Below, piece by piece: positions 19,647 through 28,376 of a DNA stretch of 64,000 bases (positions are counted from its first letter, which is position 1; every line of letters begins with the position of its first letter). Origin of the DNA: an uncultured Pseudomonadota bacterium (GTDB lineage: Bacteria; Pseudomonadota; Gammaproteobacteria; Ga0077536); NCBI GenBank assembly GCA_903825645.1, contig CAIKBL010000004.1, positions 1-64,000 of the forward strand. The letters are read 5' to 3'. Made by a program: the position numbers and the translations under genes. The notes below the pieces were generated by a model. The model ran no database searches. It was not told where the DNA came from and worked only from the letters and a program-made list of their open reading frames with translations.

Positions 19647-20111
19647 ATGGATCTGCCACCACTCAAGGCTCGTTTCGCACTTTGCGTTATCGAGAACGCG
19701 CAGCAAGAATTATTATTTCTGCGTCGCGCACCCGATCGTGCACTCGGCCCCAATCTCTGGGGCTTCCCCGCCGGCCATATTGAGCCCGGAGAAAGTGCGC
19801 GCGACGGCGCCTACCGCGAAATGACCGAGGAAATAGGCTCAGCCGTACGCGTCAGCGAACTTCGCGCACTCGGTCCGTTTCGTGATTCTTTCTACGGTGG
19901 GGTATATGAGATCAATCTCTACCATATGCGCTGGTTAAGTGGCGCTATCCTGCTCAACCAAGAGCACACGGATTGGTGTTGGGCGAGCGTAGAAACCTAT
20001 CGCCGGCTCGCGCTGATGGATGGTATCGAGGAGGATATTGCACTGCTGGATATCTGGCCTCGATCAGCGCTCAACCCTGAACGTCTGCCACTACATCTGC
20101 GCGTGCCGTGA
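19647..20111 (+). CDS. Nudix hydrolase
   Basis: 154 residues. Nudix box: GHIEPGESARDGAYREMTEEIG at about residues 45-66, with all the required G, E, R-E and E-E residues. The start ATG at 19647 lies 32 bp after aceF. It hydrolyses a nucleoside diphosphate linked to another group; the substrate is not evident. The N-terminal LKARFALCVIENAQQELLFL strand and W-G-F-P-A-G-H entry are ordinary. It overlaps the following esterase gene by 4 bp, so it belongs to the ace transcript or a short operon behind it. Confidence 0.85.
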   Translation: MDLPPLKARFALCVIENAQQELLFLRRAPDRALGPNLWGFPAGHIEPGESARDGAYREMTEEIGSAVRVSELRALGPFRDSFYGGVYEINLYHMRWLSGAILLNQEHTDWCWASVETYRRLALMDGIEEDIALLDIWPRSALNPERLPLHLRVP

Positions 20112-20766
20112 ACAGTGTCGATCTCCATTTTGATGAATTTGGCAGTGGTCCCTCCGTGGTCATCCTTCATGGCCTGTTCGGCAGTGCTCGAAACTGGCAT
20201 GCGGTCGCCCACAAGCTCGCGCGCAACCGTCGCGTCATCGTCGTCGATCGGCGCAACCATGGTCGTTCGCCGCACCGCGCGCCGCACGATTATCCCGCGC
20301 TTGCGCAAGATATCGCGCAATTGCGTGCCAAGCTTGATCTGAAGGCAGTCACCCTCATCGGACACAGCATGGGTGGGAAAGCCGCCATGCTGCAGGCCCT
20401 GACTCGACCCGAGCGCCTGGCCAGACTCGTCGTCGTCGATATAGCACCCGTGACCTATGCGGATCAGTACAGCCCCTTTATCGAGACGATGCGCGCCCTG
20501 CCACTCGAGAAGATTTCGCGACGGCAGGACGCGGCCATGCCGGCGCACGTGGACGCGCTCCCCGTGCCGGCCGGGGCCTGTTTTAGCTTGCCTGTGGACT
20601 TCATCCGGGGGGCAATTCTGATCGGGTAAAGCTGGAAGATCTCCCGTTTTGTCGAGTCTACTTTCCAGCGTTGCAGGTGCACACGATCGAAGGGGCCGGA
20701 CATTGGCCGCAGACGGCGGTGCCCCTGCCCTTTCCTGTCTGTCTTGAGCGCGTGGTGGATCACTGA
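20108..20766 (+). pseudogene. Alpha/beta hydrolase (YbfF-type esterase), internally deleted and frameshifted
   Basis: The N-terminal two thirds is a normal esterase: LHGLFGSARNWHAVA (oxyanion region), RRNHGRSPH, and the nucleophile elbow LIGHSMGGKAAM near residue 83. After about residue 145 (EKISRRQDA) the reading becomes unlike the family and stops at 20627-20629. A family-like C-terminus with the catalytic His then appears in another frame (TIEGAGHWPQ, about 20670-20710), ending with TGA at 20764-20766. The cap-domain segment between is mostly missing. I infer a deletion plus frameshift that leaves a protein lacking its catalytic His. Confidence 0.75.
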
Positions 20767-20920
20767 TGCGCATTGAGCCAACCCGATCTCCGCCGGCGGA
20801 CCGTCTGTAGATCGTTTCCCGGCGCCCTGTACCTGATGTCACCGCGCGATCTGTTACCCTGACCGGCACAAACGCCGGGTACAGGCTGGTTGACGATCGC
20901 CGCAGGAATAAGCCGTCCCG

Positions 20921-21061
20921 ACAACCCTCTACGACCAACTGCTGAAAGACCTGCTTTGGGTCGAAGACCCGGTGACAAAAGAAAAGATCGAGGTCATCCC
21001 CGGCACACTGTGCGGACGCGATGTCGCGCTCGGCAATCACGTCCCAGTCAGCCCGCCCGGG
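20921..21061 (+). pseudogene. Fic-family protein fragment
   Basis: About 47 codons read TTLYDQLLKDLLWVEDP then KIEVIPGTL and RDVALGNHVPVSPP, which corresponds to the region just before the Fic core (the conserved R-x-V-x-x-G-x-H-x-P-x-x-P strand that precedes the AMP-transferase motif). The H-P-F-x-x-G-N-G-R active-site motif is absent and the frame runs straight into IS21 sequence. It is therefore a truncated remnant, probably cut by the IS21 insertion. Confidence 0.6.
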
Positions 21062-21063
21062 AG

Positions 21064-21645
21064 GAATGAGATGAAAAAGCACTTAAAAGAGGCGTTGACC
21101 AAGCGGTATGCCGATCTGTGCAGCCACTACGGACTGCGTGCAACATGCTGCAACCCGAGGCAATCCAACGAGAACCGTTCCATCGAATCACGCAACAACT
21201 CCTTGCTGGAGCATGAAATCAACAAGCGCGAGGCCCGCCGCATTGAGCGCCATCGCAATGAATCGGGCTTAAGTTGGACAAGCGACTCTCCAGCTTTGAC
21301 TTCGCAGCTGTACCCAGTGTGTCCAAAGCGCAGGTCATGGCACTGACTGAGGGCACCGAGTGGCTTGACCGTGGCGCCAACGTATTGCGGTTTTGGACCA
21401 CCGGGCGTGGGCAAAAGCCATTTGGTCAGCGCCCTGAGATATGCCTTGATTGATGCCGGTCGGCGCGTTCTATTTACCCGGTGTTCTGATTTGGTGCAAC
21501 GCTTGCAGGCGGCGCGGCGGGATTTGCGCCTGCCGCAAGAGCTCACCAAGCTGGACCGGTTTGACTTGTTGATTCTGGATGACCTCAGTTACGTGCGGCG
21601 TGACCAAGCTGAAACCTCCGTCTTGTTTGAAGCGCAAAGTGAGCC
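21064..21645 (+). mobile_element. Decayed IS21-family element (istA 3' fragment plus broken istB)
   Basis: 21064-21195 reads as the C-terminal part of an IS21 transposase: LTKRYADLCSHYGLRA then NENRSIESR, where intact IstA has N-P-x-x-A-H-E-N-G-S-I-E-S. From about 21196 the IstB helper ATPase follows: LEHEINKREARRIERHRNE in the first frame, FDFAAVPSVSKAQVMALTEG in a second, then FGPPGVGKSHLVSA (Walker A) and LILDDLSYV (Walker B) in a third, up to LFE near 21640, where it stops. So istB has at least two frameshifts and lacks its C-terminus. No terminal inverted repeats were identified. Confidence 0.8.
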
Positions 21646-21646
21646 C

Positions 21647-22234
21647 TTATAGGTTCAGCGCCCGAATGACGTTCCGAAGGTCGAGCACCAGCTTCTGTTC
21701 GAACCAAAGGTTTTTAACTAGCCATGGCTGATTACGCGGCGACGGATGCGCTAGAGGAAGATAGCCCAGCGGCAAATATTCTTTCCATGCCTTCACGGTG
21801 TCGCCAAGCGTCGCCTTACGGCGATCGTTCAGATAATAAGCCTGCGCATGGTGGCCTATGAGCAAGGTCAGCGCGATGTCAGGTAAATGGGCATTGATCT
21901 GGTCATGCCAGCGGGGCGCGCATTCCGGACGGGGTGGGTTATCGCCGGACGCGGCTTTGCCCGGATAGCAAAAGCCCATAGGGATAATGGCAACCTTGCG
22001 CGAGTCATAAAATTGCCCCGGCGTCAGTCCCAGCCAGATGCGCAACCGGTCGCCGGACGGATCGTTCCAGGGAATGCCGGTTTCATGCACCTTGCGACCG
22101 GGCGCCTGACCGACAATGCGCAGCCGCGCTGATCCATGCGCCTGGACGACCGGGCGGGGGCCGCATGGCAGGGCGTCCGCACAATGGTTGCACGCGCGGA
22201 TATTCCTAAGCACTTGCGGCAGCGTTTTGCGCAT
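21647..22234 (-). CDS. Uracil-DNA glycosylase family protein
   Basis: 195 residues from the ATG at 22234; the longer frame to 22315 overlaps the DUF488 gene. Motif A is GQAPGRKVHETGIPWNDPSGDRLR near residue 40, VAIIPMGFCYPGK near 85, LLIGHHAQAYYL near 125 and a C-terminal HPSPRN (motif B) near 165. An N-terminal C-x2-C (ACNHCADALPCG) recalls the Fe-S ligands of family-4/5 enzymes. The expected role is removal of uracil, or another deaminated base, from DNA. Last gene of the regulator-nnrS-DUF488-UDG run, with 25 bp to DUF488. Its stop lies against the IS21 remnant. Confidence 0.85.
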   Translation of the reverse strand: MRKTLPQVLRNIRACNHCADALPCGPRPVVQAHGSARLRIVGQAPGRKVHETGIPWNDPSGDRLRIWLGLTPGQFYDSRKVAIIPMGFCYPGKAASGDNPPRPECAPRWHDQINAHLPDIALTLLIGHHAQAYYLNDRRKATLGDTVKAWKEYLPLGYLPLAHPSPRNQPWLVKNLWFEQKLVLDLRNVIRALNL

Positions 22235-22259
22235 TGTCTCCGAATTCAAACAGCTTGAC

Positions 22260-22835
22260 TTACAACAGAAAGGTAGATCGTTCCGGCGGATAGGAAATGT
22301 CCGTTCCCTCCACATGCGCGAACGGCGTCAACTTATGCCGGCGGTAGCTGCTCTCCGATAAAATCTCGACCGCCGGGATGCCGCGGACACTGAGCGCATC
22401 GGCCACCAGAGAACGATGGCAGCGCCACGGCACCGCTTCCGCACACATGATGGCAGTCTGTTTCTGGCGGCTCAAGTGAATAAGCGTTGCAAGCCCTTCC
22501 GCGAACGCCTCGGTCTGCATGTAATCGGCGTAGCCCCGAAAACTCTTGTTGCGCCAGCCGGTGTTGGATGAGTCCTTGCGCGCATGGCGCAAGCCGCCGA
22601 GCGCGGGCAGGGAAACATATTCGATATGCTCCGGCTTCAGCACACCGCCCAGCGCATCGCCGTTGAATTGCGGGTTATGACGCGAACGCGGCACCGTGCG
22701 GATGTCCGCGACGCATGCAATGCCATAGGTGTGCAACAAAGAGACGAATTGTTCTAGAAGCAAGGTCGAATGGCCGACCTTGAATACAGCGCCTTCGGGC
22801 CATTGCGCTTCCTGCGGCGGAGGTTGCTTGCTCAT
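22260..22835 (-). CDS. DUF488 family protein
   Basis: 191 residues from the ATG at 22835, which overlaps the nnrS stop (ATGA). DUF488 hallmarks are visible: FKVGHSTLLLEQFVSLL near residue 20, ADIRTVPRSRHNPQFN near 40, YVSLPALGGLR, and the C-terminal MCAEAVPWRCHRSLVADAL, with the C-x-E...C-H-R cluster likely to be the functional site. The biochemical role of DUF488 is not established. It is placed between an NO-response membrane protein and a uracil-DNA glycosylase. A longer frame upstream of 22835 is run-on inside nnrS. Confidence 0.85.
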   Translation of the reverse strand: MSKQPPPQEAQWPEGAVFKVGHSTLLLEQFVSLLHTYGIACVADIRTVPRSRHNPQFNGDALGGVLKPEHIEYVSLPALGGLRHARKDSSNTGWRNKSFRGYADYMQTEAFAEGLATLIHLSRQKQTAIMCAEAVPWRCHRSLVADALSVRGIPAVEILSESSYRRHKLTPFAHVEGTDISYPPERSTFLL

Positions 22836-24070
22836 GGCGCTTCGCCTGTACGGTTGGGCCGCCGCGTCAGCAGCATCGGGCCGTAGACCAGCTCGAACAG
22901 GCCAAACGCCGCAATCCAGCATGCGCCTGCGACGAGGAGCAGGATCGTCATGAATTCTGCGTGCCAGGAGGCGCAGACGCGAGCGACGGCGGCAGCGTTG
23001 ATGAGAACAAAGACCGCGACCGTGGCCCGATTGGCCGTCAGCTCACGCCCGGTATGCCCGAGCGTCACGCGCGGCATGACCGCGAGGACCATGACGGCGG
23101 TCGCGCCGGCTGTCAGCGCGTGAATGGCCGAAGCGGCGGGAACGCCGATGTTAAAGATTGACAGTCCGAGCAAGGCCGTGCCGACAGCCACCCAGCCATA
23201 GCCGATGTGCAGGATAAAGAGCAGTGGCTCCGGCCAGCTCGCTATGCCTGCCCAGCGACCAAGCCGCACAACATTGAGCAAGGCGGCAGCGAGCAGGAGT
23301 GCGCCAGTCAATCGATGGTCGGGGAGAAACGCCCACAGGATGAGCGCGGCGGCAAGCAAAGCGACGGCAGCGGTATCCAGCATGTCCTGAGGTGAGGGAA
23401 GACGAGGGCTCTTGCGCTTGAACAGCCAGCTGCGCGTGAAACTGGGAATGATGCGTCCACCAATGATCGAGATCAGCACGAAGGGCGCGCCGACGGCGAG
23501 GCGCCAGCCGAGGCCTGTGAGCACGGACACACCGAGAGATTCGAGGTGCATCAGCAGATCGGCGATAGTGAAAAGCACGAGAGGCGCTGTCATGGGCAAG
23601 TTGCGCCAGTTGCGCCCGGCGATGATTTCGCGGGCGGCGACGGCGAGCAGCGCGGTGGGAAACGCCAGATCGGCAAGGACTGCCAGCCACGCGGGAAGGT
23701 CCGCCGAGATCAGGCAGGCAAGACGCCCGAGCAGCCAGAGGCCAGCCAGTACAGCGAGCCGATAGCCCCGCACCGGCAGCCGGCCGGTCCAGTTCGGAAT
23801 CGCGGTCAGCAGGAAGCCTGCCACCGCCGCCATCACAAAGCCGAACAGCATCTCATGAACATGCCACGCCAGCGGATCGAACCGGGTTGGCAATTGCACA
23901 AAGCCGAAGAACATCGCGAGCCACAGCGCCAACGCGATAACCGCCCAGCTCCCGGCGGCGAGAAACATCGGGCGGAACGCGTAGTCGATCACGGCCGGTA
24001 GCCGTGCCCGGCGGAGGCGTTTTTCCTCGGCGGTCAGATTGACGGCATCGGGGTCGCGCACCTGGCTCAT
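22832..24070 (-). CDS. nnrS: NnrS family protein (NO-response, haem/copper membrane protein)
   Basis: 412 residues, with about twelve hydrophobic segments. Family features: FRPMFLAAGSWAVIAL near residue 35, WHVHEMLFGFVMAAVAGFLLTAIPNWTG near 70 with conserved His, RIIPSFTRSWL near 205, and HALTAGATAVMVLAVMPRVTLGHTGR near 320. NnrS is induced by nitric oxide in several proteobacteria and protects metabolism under nitrosative stress; its chemistry is not settled. It overlaps the stop of the upstream Rrf2 regulator gene by 4 bp, which fits NO-dependent control. Confidence 0.9.
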   Translation of the reverse strand: MSQVRDPDAVNLTAEEKRLRRARLPAVIDYAFRPMFLAAGSWAVIALALWLAMFFGFVQLPTRFDPLAWHVHEMLFGFVMAAVAGFLLTAIPNWTGRLPVRGYRLAVLAGLWLLGRLACLISADLPAWLAVLADLAFPTALLAVAAREIIAGRNWRNLPMTAPLVLFTIADLLMHLESLGVSVLTGLGWRLAVGAPFVLISIIGGRIIPSFTRSWLFKRKSPRLPSPQDMLDTAAVALLAAALILWAFLPDHRLTGALLLAAALLNVVRLGRWAGIASWPEPLLFILHIGYGWVAVGTALLGLSIFNIGVPAASAIHALTAGATAVMVLAVMPRVTLGHTGRELTANRATVAVFVLINAAAVARVCASWHAEFMTILLLVAGACWIAAFGLFELVYGPMLLTRRPNRTGEAP

Positions 24071-24513
24071 GCCGTCCTCGTTTCCTCGACGGGGAACAGG
24101 GCGAAGAGTTTGCGCCGCGCCTTGGTAAGGTCGGCAAGCGTATAGCGATCCAGCACGGCGAGGAACGCGTCGAGCGCTTCATCGAGAGCGCCCTTGAGAA
24201 CACAGGCCGGCTGGATGACGCAGGCGCCAGACGCGTTGAAGCACGGAACGATATCTAAATCCGGTTCCATCCGGCGGACGACCGCGCCGATATTGATCTC
24301 GGCAGCCGGTCGGGCGAGGCGGAGTCCGCCATTCCTGCCCCGTACCGTCTCGACATAACCGGCGAGGCCAATCTGATGGGCCACCTTCATCGGGTGATTC
24401 TCGGATATCCCATAACCATTCGCGATAGCGGCAATCGTCGTGAGCCCCTTGGGTTGGACGGCAAGACGGATGAGAACGCGCAAGGTGTAGTCGGTGTAGG
24501 TTTTAAGGCGCAT
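24067..24513 (-). CDS. Rrf2-family transcriptional regulator, NsrR-like NO sensor
   Basis: 148 residues from the ATG at 24513 (MRLKTYTDYTLRVLIRLAV), the exact N-terminus expected of Rrf2 proteins. A winged helix covers residues 1-75 (VRGRNGGLRLARP wing). The three Fe-S cysteines lie in CFNASGACVIQPAC with spacing i, i+7, i+13, as in NsrR. NsrR loses DNA binding when NO damages its cluster. The ATGA overlap with nnrS makes it the first gene of its target operon, so autoregulation is likely. I could not find a convincing NsrR palindrome in the 100 bp upstream. The frame extension to 24552 is not needed. Confidence 0.88.
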   Translation of the reverse strand: MRLKTYTDYTLRVLIRLAVQPKGLTTIAAIANGYGISENHPMKVAHQIGLAGYVETVRGRNGGLRLARPAAEINIGAVVRRMEPDLDIVPCFNASGACVIQPACVLKGALDEALDAFLAVLDRYTLADLTKARRKLFALFPVEETRTA

Positions 24514-25154: not shown

Positions 25155-26375
25155 ATGTCCAAAAATTCTGTCAAAAAAGTCGTGCTGGCCTACTCCGGTG
25201 GGCTTGATACCTCCGTTATTCTGAAATGGCTGCAGGAAACCTATGCCTGCGAAATCGTGACCTTCACCGCTGATATCGGTCAGGGCGAAGAGCTCGAACC
25301 CGCGCGTCGCAAAGCCGAACTTCTCGGGGTGAAGGAAATCTTCATCGACGATTTGCGGGAAGAGTTCGTGCGTGACTTCGTGTTCCCGATGTTCCGGGCG
25401 AACACCCTCTATGAAGGGGAATATCTGCTCGGAACCTCGATCGCACGCCCACTCATCGCCAAACGGCTCGTCGAGATCGCGCGAATGACCGGCGCGGATG
25501 CGATTTCGCATGGGGCCACGGGCAAGGGTAATGATCAAGTCCGCTTCGAACTGGGCGCATATGCCCTGCAGCCGGATATTCGGGTCATTGCCCCCTGGCG
25601 TGAATGGAGCCTGACCTCCCGGGAGACATTGCTCGCCTACGCGCGCCAACATGCCATTCCGATCGAGTACCAGTCCGGGACCAAATCGCCCTATTCGATG
25701 GACGCGAATCTCCTGCATATCTCCTACGAGGGCGGCGTACTGGAAGATCCCTGGACCCCTGCAGAAGATGCCATGTGGCGCTGGTCGGTGTCACCGGAGA
25801 GCGCTCCGGATGTCGCGCAGATGATTGATCTGGATTTCGAGGGCGGAGATCTCGTCGCTCTCGACGGGCAAAAAATGACGCCCGCAACTCTGCTCACCGA
25901 ACTCAACAGGATTGGTGGTGCGCACGGCATCGGTCGACTCGACCTCGTCGAAAATCGTTATGTCGGTATGAAGTCGCGGGGTTGTTATGAAACTCCCGGC
26001 GGCACCATTCTGCTCAAGGCCCATAGGGCGATCGAGTCGATTACGCTCGACCGCGAAGTGGCGCATCTCAAGGATGAGCTAATGCCGCGGTATGCCTCGC
26101 TGGTCTACAACGGGTATTGGTGGAGCCCAGAGCGCGTGATGCTACAGAAAATGATCGACGAATCGCAGCTGCGCGTGAATGGCGGCGTACGCCTCAAGCT
26201 GTATAAGGGCAATGTCATTGTCGTCGGGCGTCGCTCTGAACGGGATAGCCTGTTCAGTACCCAGCTGGCCACCTTCGAGGATGATGCTGGTAGCTACAAT
26301 CAGGCCGACGCCGGTGGCTTCATTCGACTGAATGCCCTACGGATGCGGGTGGCGGCTCGCCGCGATCCGGGTTAG
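25155..26375 (+). CDS. argG: Argininosuccinate synthase
   Basis: 406 residues from the ATG at 25155; the frame extension to 25113 is dropped because [14 protein letters not shown] sits at the normal distance. It condenses citrulline and aspartate using ATP (AMP plus PPi) in arginine synthesis. Motifs: the PP-loop [20 protein letters not shown] near residue 115, and [14 protein letters not shown]-type block near 270. Length fits the common ~400-residue type rather than the longer E. coli type. Its stop shares bases with the convergent hvfC stop. Confidence 0.97.
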
Positions 26376-27172
26376 CCCAGACGGGTTTCCCTAGCAGCCG
26401 ATGGCGGCTCATCCCTTGCGTTTAGCCGGGCCCCGAGCAGCACGGCGTGCGAAGACAACATCGCCAATATCCGTTGGCCCTGCGCGCACAGGGTTGACGG
26501 TGAGGGATGCGCCATTTCGATAGCTAACTGAAGGAGCAGCCTTTCGCCCGATTGGCCTGCCGTGTTTTTCTGAATCAATTCCAGAAGGCGTGCGGTAACG
26601 GGTGTGAGCATCAGGCGCGACACCCGGTCATCCAACGCGCGATAGATCACAAAAGCGGTAGGCGCAGGCGCCACTGTCGGGTTGAAAGCATCCAACTCGT
26701 GCACGGGGTACGCGTAGCGCACGAGACGCGCCAGCGGATTCGCAATCGGCCGATGCCGAAACGGATCGGCCTGTGCGTCCACAACCTCATCGCTTACCTC
26801 TGCGGGATGAAACGCCACCTCGACCTCGAGCCATTCATAATGCGCCAACTCACGCGCAAAACCGGGCAGTTCGAGCGCAGGATGGTGACTCAGGAAGTTC
26901 AGAAATTCGAGCGGGAGACGAGGAAAAACAGGCGTCTGAGCCCGATAATCGCTTAAGAAACGGCGTATGCAAAATATCCATCGGGATGGCGGTAGCACCG
27001 CATGCAGGAGGGGAAACGCACCACGCAGCAAGGCGTCTAAATTGCGATCAACAAGCCCCGCATAGATGTCCATTTGTCGCGGCGTTACCCCGCCGGGGGT
27101 GGCAGACATCCCTGGCGTGCGCAGGCCGGCCGTAAAAGCACGCTGCACCGCCTGGAAATCGCCGATGGCCAT
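26372..27172 (-). CDS. hvfC: DUF2063/HvfC-type RiPP maturation partner
   Basis: 266 residues from the ATG at 27172 ([17 protein letters not shown]); an upstream frame extends inside hvfB and is not used. The N-terminal DUF2063 domain shows [25 protein letters not shown] followed by F-L-x-x-Y-R and [18 protein letters not shown] near residue 120, typical of HvfC/BufC proteins, which act with a DUF692 enzyme and are thought to recruit the precursor peptide. The DNA-binding label often given to this family is a misnomer in this context. The start overlaps the hvfB stop as TGATG. Confidence 0.85.
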
Positions 27173-28023
27173 CAGCCCCGCGCCAAACCGCTCGCCTGCT
27201 GCAGACGCCCAATGCGCGACATCTCGCTCACCAGTGCTGCCAGCGACGGCAGATTCGCGTCGCGCTCGAGGACGGTGGGGAGCGCACCGTGGACACGATA
27301 AGCCGCGACCAGTAAATCCCACACCGGCTCGCTGACCGCCTCGCCGTGTGTATCGAGCAGTAAATCCGGGGCGGTGCGGAGATGTCCGGCAATATGGGCT
27401 CCGATGATCCGCTTGGTCGGCAACGCGCGCAGGAAGTCGTGCGGCGGATCCTGCCCATGATTGATGCTGTTGACATAAAGGTTGTTAAGGTCGAGCAGTA
27501 AATCGCAATCCGCCTCTTCGAGCACCCGCAACAGAAATTCCAGCTCCGTCATTTCTGCCCCCGGGGCGGCATAGTAAGCGACGTTCTCAACGGCGATGCG
27601 ACACTCCAGCACCTCCTGCACGCGCCGGACGCGCGCCGCCACGTAGTGCACGGCTTCATCTGTGAACGGAATGGGCAATAATTCATAGAGGTGGCCATCA
27701 TCGGCGCAGTAGCTGAGGTGTTCGCTGTAGCCTTGGGCGTGGTGCAGGGCGAGGAAGGCTTTAATTTCGTGCAGAAAGTCGATATCGAGCGGCGCCCAAC
27801 CACCGAGGTTAAGCGACAGGCCATGACAAGTCAGCGGATAACGCTCGCTGCACGCGCGAAGACGTCGCGCCAGTGGCCCCCCGAGTCCTAGCCAGTTCTC
27901 CGGGGCGGTCTCCAGGAAATCAATCTCGGGCGGACGGGTGTCGCAGAGCGCGCTAAGCAGCACCCGACGTAGACCAAGACCTTGACCATGAATGCCATCG
28001 GTGGGTGCCACAGATCCGGTCAC
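27172..28023 (-). CDS. hvfB: DUF692 multinuclear non-haem iron oxidative enzyme (HvfB/BufB/MbnB type)
   Basis: 283 residues, a TIM-barrel MNIO enzyme. Visible conserved blocks carry likely metal ligands: FLETAPENWLG near residue 37, CHGLSLNLGG near 65, SEHLSYC near 100, VENVAYY near 145, LDLNNLYVNSINHG near 180, GAHIAGH near 210 and LDTHGEAV near 225. Family members oxidise cysteine in a small precursor: MbnB makes oxazolone-thioamide in methanobactin, and BufB/HvfB-type enzymes modify EGKCG cysteines. It is flanked by the precursor gene (9-bp gap) and overlaps the hvfC start, so the three genes form a complete core operon. Confidence 0.9.
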   Translation of the reverse strand: MTGSVAPTDGIHGQGLGLRRVLLSALCDTRPPEIDFLETAPENWLGLGGPLARRLRACSERYPLTCHGLSLNLGGWAPLDIDFLHEIKAFLALHHAQGYSEHLSYCADDGHLYELLPIPFTDEAVHYVAARVRRVQEVLECRIAVENVAYYAAPGAEMTELEFLLRVLEEADCDLLLDLNNLYVNSINHGQDPPHDFLRALPTKRIIGAHIAGHLRTAPDLLLDTHGEAVSEPVWDLLVAAYRVHGALPTVLERDANLPSLAALVSEMSRIGRLQQASGLARG

Positions 28024-28031
28024 GCGAGCGC

Positions 28032-28280
28032 TTAGTTACCGCACTTACCCTCAGCGCCTTTTTCACCCCCACACTTGCCCTCAGCGCCTTTGGACTCGCC
28101 ACTGGCGGTATCGGCGGCGAGCGGTACACGCGGCTCGGAGAGACCCTGCCGAGGGGCAGATACTGGCCTGATCCCGAAGGGATCAGCCCCGGCGTCCGCC
28201 GTTGATGCCAAGGTCAGCGACATGACCAGGGTAGTACCCAGTGCCGCCGCGATCGATTTTAGTTCCGCATATTTCGCCAT
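28032..28280 (-). CDS. hvfA: Secreted RiPP precursor with two EGKCG motifs (HvfA/bufferin-like)
   Basis: 82 residues from the ATG at 28280, preceded by a strong AAGGAGG site. A Sec-type signal peptide occupies residues 1 to about 29 (hydrophobic TTLVMSLTLASTADA). The mature peptide is short, Gly/Lys/Glu-rich, with two exact copies of KGAEGKCG at residues 64-71 and 74-81; the only cysteines are Cys70 and Cys80, both in EGKCG. This is the signature of HvfA/BufA-type substrates of DUF692 enzymes, proposed to chelate copper or other metals in the periplasm. The number of motifs is small compared with many homologues. The longer frame to 28337 is run-on. Confidence 0.88.
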   Translation of the reverse strand: MAKYAELKSIAAALGTTLVMSLTLASTADAGADPFGIRPVSAPRQGLSEPRVPLAADTASGESKGAEGKCGGEKGAEGKCGN

Positions 28281-28376
28281 GATCACTCCCTCCTTAGACG
28301 ACGTAACCCGCGGCCTCTGCGAACCGCGTGGCGGCACGAAGCAGCAGCGCCATGAGCATATACCCTCTGCGGTCCA

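What the first reader, a model, noticed from the sequence alone, without database searches (positions are those of the whole stretch)
21647..24513. NO-sensor/NnrS operon carrying a uracil-DNA glycosylase
An NsrR-like regulator with three Fe-S cysteines, NnrS, a DUF488 protein and a UDG-family enzyme are in one tightly overlapping minus-strand run (ATGA junctions at 24067-24070 and 22832-22835; 25 bp before UDG). Nitric oxide, through N2O3, deaminates cytosine to uracil, so an NO-inducible uracil glycosylase would be a logical repair arm of nitrosative-stress defence. DUF488, whose role is unknown, sits between the two. I do not know of this combination being described as a unit.
Basis: partly seen in the sequence, partly recalled or inferred. 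Interest (0 to 1): 0.7.

Follow-up and report, generated by a model that had tools for sequence, protein, structure and literature searches.

The report
Acquired nnrS operon carrying DUF488–UDG-like pair
A known kind of nitric-oxide-response gene pair (regulator plus NnrS) has been joined, on an inserted piece of DNA, to a separate travelling pair of genes (DUF488 and an iron-sulphur relative of uracil-DNA glycosylase), so the four-gene operon is real but rare, and its last gene probably does not recognise uracil in the usual way.

Summary
The four genes, their order and the ATGA/ATGA/25-bp junctions are exactly as described. The NO-repair story is mostly not supported. (1) The four-gene order is not conserved. 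Of 80 nearest UDG loci only one, a 90%-identical MAG copy whose contig starts inside nnrS, keeps nnrS-DUF488-UDG. None of 58 NnrS neighbourhoods in other genomes encodes this UDG. (2) The operon is an insertion: five congeneric genomes have the flanking genes without it, and hydrolase and IstB (IS21) fragments lie at its left edge. (3) No NsrR-type operator lies upstream. (4) The 'UDG' belongs to an uncharacterised subfamily (nearest structure 3IKB). It keeps the family-4 Fe-S cysteines and the motif-2 His, but the uracil-contacting Asn is Pro in all 40 relatives aligned, the thymine-excluding Glu is Val, and the water-positioning Asn is lost. The genome also carries an ordinary family-4 UDG. 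What does recur is DUF488 beside or near this UDG: in Sphingomonas, on Rhodococcus plasmids and here, within one horizontally moving UDG clade (7 of 10 members). My reading: a mobile DUF488–UDG-like DNA-processing cassette that joined an Rrf2–nnrS unit. NO control in this lineage is possible but unshown; uracil as substrate is doubtful.

The parts
24067..24513 (-). Rrf2-family regulator, NsrR/RirA-like, three Fe-S cysteines
   Evidence: PF02082 116.5 bits; NsrR model 141 bits, below cutoff 182
22832..24070 (-). NnrS membrane protein; ATGA overlap with Rrf2 gene
   Evidence: PF05940 363.5 bits; nearest named relatives found are alphaproteobacterial (57% on a Methylocella plasmid)
22260..22835 (-). 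DUF488 protein with invariant MCAEAVPWRCHR motif; ATGA overlap with nnrS
   Evidence: PF04343 117 bits; invariant motif in 8 aligned sequences; PADLOC candidate-defence models PDC-M45B/M19A; weak PTP/tetrapyrrole-methylase fold neighbours
21647..22234 (-). UDG-superfamily protein of the uncharacterised 3IKB subfamily; C15/C18/C89/C105 Fe-S set, H163 kept, P85 in place of the uracil-binding Asn
   Evidence: PF03167 86 bits; 3ikb E 1.2e-52; conservation; model pLDDT 96.5, top fold hits 3ikb then family-4 UDGs
21365..21652 (+). IstB (IS21 transposase helper) fragment at the 3' end of the operon, overlapping the UDG stop codon by 6 bp
   Evidence: PF01695 67 bits over profile 98-177 only; 80-87% DNA identity to IS21 elements on Polaromonas/Comamonadaceae plasmids
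20108..20629 (+). alpha/beta hydrolase truncated at its 3' end (173 aa; tblastn matches span 205-209 aa in four congeneric genomes); left edge of the inserted segment
20518..24683 (.). approximate inserted segment: homology to congeneric genomes ends at about 20517 and resumes at about 24683
   Evidence: blastn against L195-L199; none of the four genes detected in these loci

Best explanation
This is a composite, horizontally acquired operon. An Rrf2-nnrS unit of known type (NO/iron-sulphur-sensing regulator plus NnrS) has been joined by tight, probably translationally coupled junctions to a separately mobile two-gene cassette, DUF488 plus a 3IKB-type UDG-superfamily protein. The UDG-like protein most likely binds a [4Fe-4S] cluster and flips or excises a base from DNA, with H163 stabilising the leaving group as in family 4, but its remodelled pocket (Q43-A44, V49-H50, W56, P85) points to a substrate other than ordinary uracil. 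DUF488, a predicted Cys-centred Rossmann-like phosphatase/rhodanese-type enzyme, is its partner and may process the resulting abasic or damaged DNA end. In this lineage the cassette may be induced with nnrS when the Rrf2 repressor's cluster is damaged. Shown: gene content, junctions, insertion, recurrence of the DUF488-UDG pair, residue substitutions, purifying selection. Inferred: cluster binding, glycosylase activity on a non-uracil lesion, DUF488 partnership and chemistry, shared induction.
For: Insertion: five congeneric genomes keep E2-NUDIX-(hydrolase)-argG without the four genes, and the UDG is absent from all five; homology breaks at about 20517 and 24683. Modularity: in the UDG tree (112 rows) all 7 DUF488-linked members fall in one 10-member clade (support 100/98) spanning Actinomycetota plasmids, Sphingomonas and this genome; 2 label changes against 6.9 in shuffles, 0 of 500 as low. 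DUF488-UDG adjacent in L004, L007 and L200, and about 1.2 kb apart on three Rhodococcus plasmids, with carbonic anhydrase annotated between in two of them. NnrS occurs elsewhere without them. Fe-S cysteines invariant or 39/40 with the same C-x15-C spacing as Tth UDGa; H163 40/40 but P85 40/40, V49 39/40, position 94 variable. Own family-4 UDG on contig 49. dN/dS 0.10-0.19.
Against: The tight nnrS-DUF488 junction is kept in L002 under purifying selection, so the fusion with nnrS may be functional rather than incidental. In most genomes the UDG family occurs without a nearby DUF488, so partnership may be limited to one clade or be a hitch-hiking effect. Three close DUF488 relatives (G422, G636, G568) lie without the UDG beside them, and two of these genomes lack a UDG of this family. 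Sequence cannot show loss of uracil activity: Tth UDGa N89A keeps part of its activity. DUF488 fold matches are at the background level for Z.
Confidence: 0.5

Rival explanations
1. One reading: an NsrR-controlled NO-stress operon whose UDG removes uracil made by NO-driven cytosine deamination, with DUF488 as an accessory.
For: Operon architecture; nsrR-nnrS linkage is known; Ung protects Salmonella from NO mutagenesis (PMC2680585); the NnrS/DUF488/UDG trio persists under purifying selection in L002.
Against: Order found nowhere else in 80 UDG loci and 58 NnrS loci; no NsrR operator (best site 5 mismatches of 14); uracil-contact Asn is Pro in 40/40; the genome already has a family-4 UDG.
Confidence: 0.15
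2. Fortuitous juxtaposition: two unrelated mobile gene pairs landed together on an IS-associated island, share a transcript by accident, and have no common function.
For: IS21 fragment at the edge; restricted to this genome and one MAG; DUF488/UDG also sit on plasmids.
Against: The nnrS-DUF488 junction is retained in L002 with dN/dS 0.1-0.2, so the arrangement has lasted while synonymous sites diverged by about 0.35-0.55.
Confidence: 0.25
3. DUF488-UDG is a small anti-phage or anti-plasmid module that recognises modified or damaged DNA, carried on mobile islands.
For: DUF488 matches PADLOC candidate-defence models PDC-M45B (8e-32) and PDC-M19A (3.7e-16); plasmid carriage; a UDG relative sits near a CBASS cyclase on a Polaromonas plasmid.
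Against: PDC models are candidates only; the UDG itself matches no PADLOC model; in Flavobacteria the family sits among conserved chromosomal genes.
Confidence: 0.1

Closest known systems
NsrR-NnrS NO-response operon (Rodionov et al. 2005, PMC1274295)
   Same: Rrf2/NsrR-like regulator with three cysteines followed by nnrS
   Different: Regulator scores below the NsrR cutoff, no NsrR operator detected, and two DNA-processing-type genes are appended
Family-4 uracil-DNA glycosylase (UDGa) and UdgX
   Same: Fold, four Fe-S cysteines with family-4-like spacing, motif-2 histidine
   Different: GQAPG for GEGPG in Tth, V49-H50 for E47-D48, P85 for N80, N89 lost; below the curated cutoffs of the family-4 and UdgX models
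3IKB protein of Streptococcus mutans (PDB, uncharacterised)
   Same: Closest solved relative: E 1.2e-52, 46% identity in the structural alignment; shares IPM at the N80 site and HPSPRN
   Different: Lacks the cysteines that the window protein has at C89 and C105 (alignment); no reported activity found
DUF488 / rhodanese-phosphatase superfamily (Burroughs and Aravind 2023, recalled, not read)
   Same: Conserved Cys motif; model neighbours include PTPs and tetrapyrrole methylases
   Different: No substrate known for this clade; Pfam DUF488-N3a subclade score just below its cutoff

Membership tests
NsrR-NnrS NO-response operon | Rrf2 protein with three cluster cysteines beside nnrS | tested here: met
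   same pairing in L127, L128, L135, L139
NsrR-NnrS NO-response operon | Curated NsrR equivalog score reached | tested here: not met
   141 bits against cutoff 182
NsrR-NnrS NO-response operon | NsrR operator gATGyAT-N5-ATrCATc upstream | tested here: not met
   no site with 3 or fewer mismatches near the promoter; best has 5
NsrR-NnrS NO-response operon | Induction by NO | not testable with these tools
   needs expression data
Family-4 uracil-DNA glycosylase | UDG-superfamily fold | tested here: met
   PF03167 over cutoff; fold hits 3ikb, 1ui1, 1ui0
Family-4 uracil-DNA glycosylase | Four Fe-S cysteines | tested here: met
   C15, C18, C105 40/40, C89 39/40; cluster binding itself not tested
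Family-4 uracil-DNA glycosylase | Uracil-binding Asn (Tth N80), E47 and N89 | tested here: not met
   P85 40/40, V49 39/40, position 94 variable
Family-4 uracil-DNA glycosylase | Curated family-4 score | tested here: not met
   20.5 of 250 bits and 19.4 of 125.3 bits
UdgX | KRRIH R-loop with cross-linking His | tested here: not met
   no KRRIH in the sequence; UdgX model 14.2 of 189.95 bits; H50 is invariant but lies in motif 1
DUF488 | Pfam DUF488 domain over its cutoff | tested here: met
   117 bits against 22.2

The most novel reading that the evidence does not exclude
DUF488 and the 3IKB-type UDG-like protein form a two-enzyme, horizontally mobile system that excises a base lesion other than uracil and processes the resulting DNA end, and in this lineage it has been put under an NO/Fe-S-sensing repressor, giving a dedicated nitrosative DNA-lesion repair unit for a deamination or adduct product not handled by ordinary UDG.
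Probability: 0.2. Interest if true: 0.65.

Novelty: new variant of a known kind. Interest (0 to 1): 0.33.

Why it matters
The four-gene unit itself is a rare lineage-specific assembly. The wider point is that a UDG-superfamily group with at least 574 loci found (a lower bound), routinely annotated as uracil-DNA glycosylase family protein, lacks the residue that reads uracil in family 4, keeps an Fe-S cysteine set, and in one mobile clade travels with DUF488. That makes both families' unknown activities directly testable together.

Tried and rejected
NsrR, FNR, DNR, NnrR and iron-rhodo-type operators upstream of the Rrf2 gene: no convincing site. Sigma-70 promoters and terminators: at chance level. 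UDG relatives in viral contigs: none. A solved structure matching DUF488 by sequence: none. DUF488 fold search: no Foldseek hit under 1e-3 and VIA Z about 8, background level, though the listed rows are mostly PTP phosphatases and tetrapyrrole-methylase-type enzymes. nirK in the genome: not detected. Papers naming NO with UDG and NsrR, DUF488 with glycosylase, or 3IKB with glycosylase: none held.

Full report
Observation. The window carries, on the minus strand, an Rrf2-family regulator (24513-24067), NnrS (24070-22832), a DUF488 protein (22835-22260) and a UDG-superfamily protein (22234-21647), with ATGA overlaps at the first two junctions and a 25-bp gap before the last gene. The regulator has the three cluster cysteines (C-x6-C-x5-C) but scores 141 bits against the curated NsrR model, under its cutoff of 182, so 'NsrR-like' is the right strength of claim.

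Is the order conserved? No. The scan of named genomes found 574 UDG relatives (a lower bound) and kept the best 80 loci with up to 10 kb of flank; only L002, a 90%-identical copy in a metagenome-assembled genome, also carries nnrS and DUF488, and its contig starts inside nnrS. In 274 genomes of the same class the UDG occurs in 41 and a good NnrS in 33; of the 29 UDG loci fetched from other genomes none has NnrS, Rrf2 or DUF488 within about 1.5 kb. Across 58 NnrS neighbourhoods from other genomes in the class and phylum samples, profile searches find no UDG of this family and no DUF488; the only NnrS-DUF488 proximity seen is a Methylocystis plasmid with the genes about 4.5 kb apart. An Rrf2 gene next to NnrS was seen in four class loci (L127, L128, L135, L139), in agreement with the published nsrR-nnrS association (PMC1274295).

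It is an inserted segment. The UDG is absent from all five congeneric genomes held. In those genomes the neighbours E2, NUDIX hydrolase, usually the alpha/beta hydrolase, and argG are in the same order with none of the four genes detected in the stretches read. Alignment to them stops at about window 20517, inside the hydrolase gene, which is truncated here, and resumes at about 24683. An IstB fragment of an IS21-type element lies at 21365-21652, its end overlapping the UDG stop codon by six bases; it is 80-87% identical to plasmid IS21 elements. In L002 the same genes are followed by different DNA, including an Hva1-TUDOR (DUF2945) gene. The best NnrS and DUF488 relatives found are outside the class; those with names are alphaproteobacterial, or for DUF488 also a methanotroph and Rhodococcus plasmids. 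I read this as horizontal acquisition.

The recurrent unit is DUF488 with UDG. DUF488 lies next to the UDG in Sphingomonas L004 and L007 and in G523 (L200; G505 shows the same arrangement and probably is the L004 genome), and about 1.2 kb upstream of it on three Rhodococcus plasmids, two of which have a carbonic anhydrase annotated between. A 112-row tree puts all seven DUF488-linked UDGs in one ten-member clade (support 100/98) that spans Actinomycetota and Pseudomonadota; two label changes are needed against a shuffled mean of 6.9. Three of five close DUF488 relatives in the phylum sample lack the UDG alongside, so the linkage is frequent but not obligatory. A DUF2945 gene is also found near UDG or DUF488 in L002, L004, L005, L204 and L209. 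Outside this clade the family shows lineage-specific neighbours, for instance what look like a 16S methylase and thymidine kinase in Flavobacteria (identified by eye from the sequences).

Is it a uracil glycosylase? Doubtful. The protein is over the Pfam UDG cutoff but far under the family-4 and UdgX curated models, and its nearest solved relative is the uncharacterised 3IKB. The predicted model is confident (pLDDT 96.5) and matches 3IKB and then family-4 UDGs. It keeps a family-4-type cysteine set (C15, C18, C89, C105, with C-x15-C as in the Tth sequence printed) and the motif-2 histidine H163, the residue shown to matter most for catalysis in Tth UDGa (PMC5387724). But Tth N80, which makes the two hydrogen bonds to uracil, aligns with a proline present in 40 of 40 relatives; E47, which excludes thymine, is V49 (39 of 40); N89, which positions water, falls on a variable position; E41-G42 is Q43-A44. 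Substitutions at N80 cost over 40-fold in Tth UDGa by the paper's text. These mappings rest on a pairwise sequence alignment and were not checked on superposed coordinates. The same genome has a canonical family-4 UDG elsewhere (GEAPG motif), so a second ordinary uracil glycosylase is not obviously needed.

DUF488. The motif MCAEAVPWRCHR is invariant in the eight sequences aligned. The model (pLDDT 82) has weak fold neighbours that are mostly protein tyrosine phosphatases and tetrapyrrole-methylase-type proteins; this agrees with a classification I recall (Burroughs and Aravind 2023, not held) that places DUF488 in the rhodanese-phosphatase superfamily with predicted nucleic-acid end-processing members. 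Z values are at the background level, so this is a lead only. PADLOC lists related proteins among candidate defence genes.

Regulation. No NsrR palindrome with three or fewer mismatches lies near the promoter, and the best has five mismatches of fourteen fixed positions. No promoter-like or terminator-like site stands out from chance. NO or Fe-S control of the operon therefore rests only on the kind of regulator present.

Selection. Against L002, dN/dS is 0.17 for UDG, 0.19 for DUF488 and 0.10 for the shared part of NnrS, with dS 0.35-0.55, and the ATGA at the start of DUF488 is retained. The genes are functional and the linkage has persisted, which argues against a purely accidental, very recent joining.

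Verdict. Observation confirmed; interpretation partly supported. The most likely account is a composite acquired operon in which a mobile DUF488-UDG-like cassette was joined to an Rrf2-nnrS unit. The NO link is possible for this lineage, not general; the uracil link is doubtful. The more interesting open question is the substrate of the 3IKB-type Fe-S UDG subfamily and whether DUF488 is its partner.

Noticed in passing
window 26372-28337, minus strand: A MbnB/TglH/ChrH-type RiPP enzyme (27172-28023) with a DUF2063/NGO1945 partner (26372-27322) and, just upstream, a 101-aa ORF (28032-28337) ending in EGKCGGEKGAEGKCGN: looks like a bufferin-type RiPP operon.
   Followed up: partly
L002 1478-1696; L004; L005; L204; L209: A DUF2945 (Hva1 TUDOR) gene recurs near DUF488 and/or this UDG in several lineages, suggesting a mix-and-match island gene set.
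   Followed up: partly
L217 1741-4585: A UDG relative on a Polaromonas conjugative plasmid lies about 1.4 kb downstream of a CBASS cyclase.
   Followed up: no
window 20912-21346, plus strand: A reading frame left of the IstB fragment, inside the inserted segment, looks like a piece of a Fic-type protein by eye but has no Pfam match; probably debris.
   Followed up: partly
PDB 9qhs_A: A phage phiLo family-A DNA polymerase, solved with a modified template, contains a region with a UDG-like fold (Foldseek E 1.7e-5), hinting at UDG folds that serve as modified-base readers.
   Followed up: no
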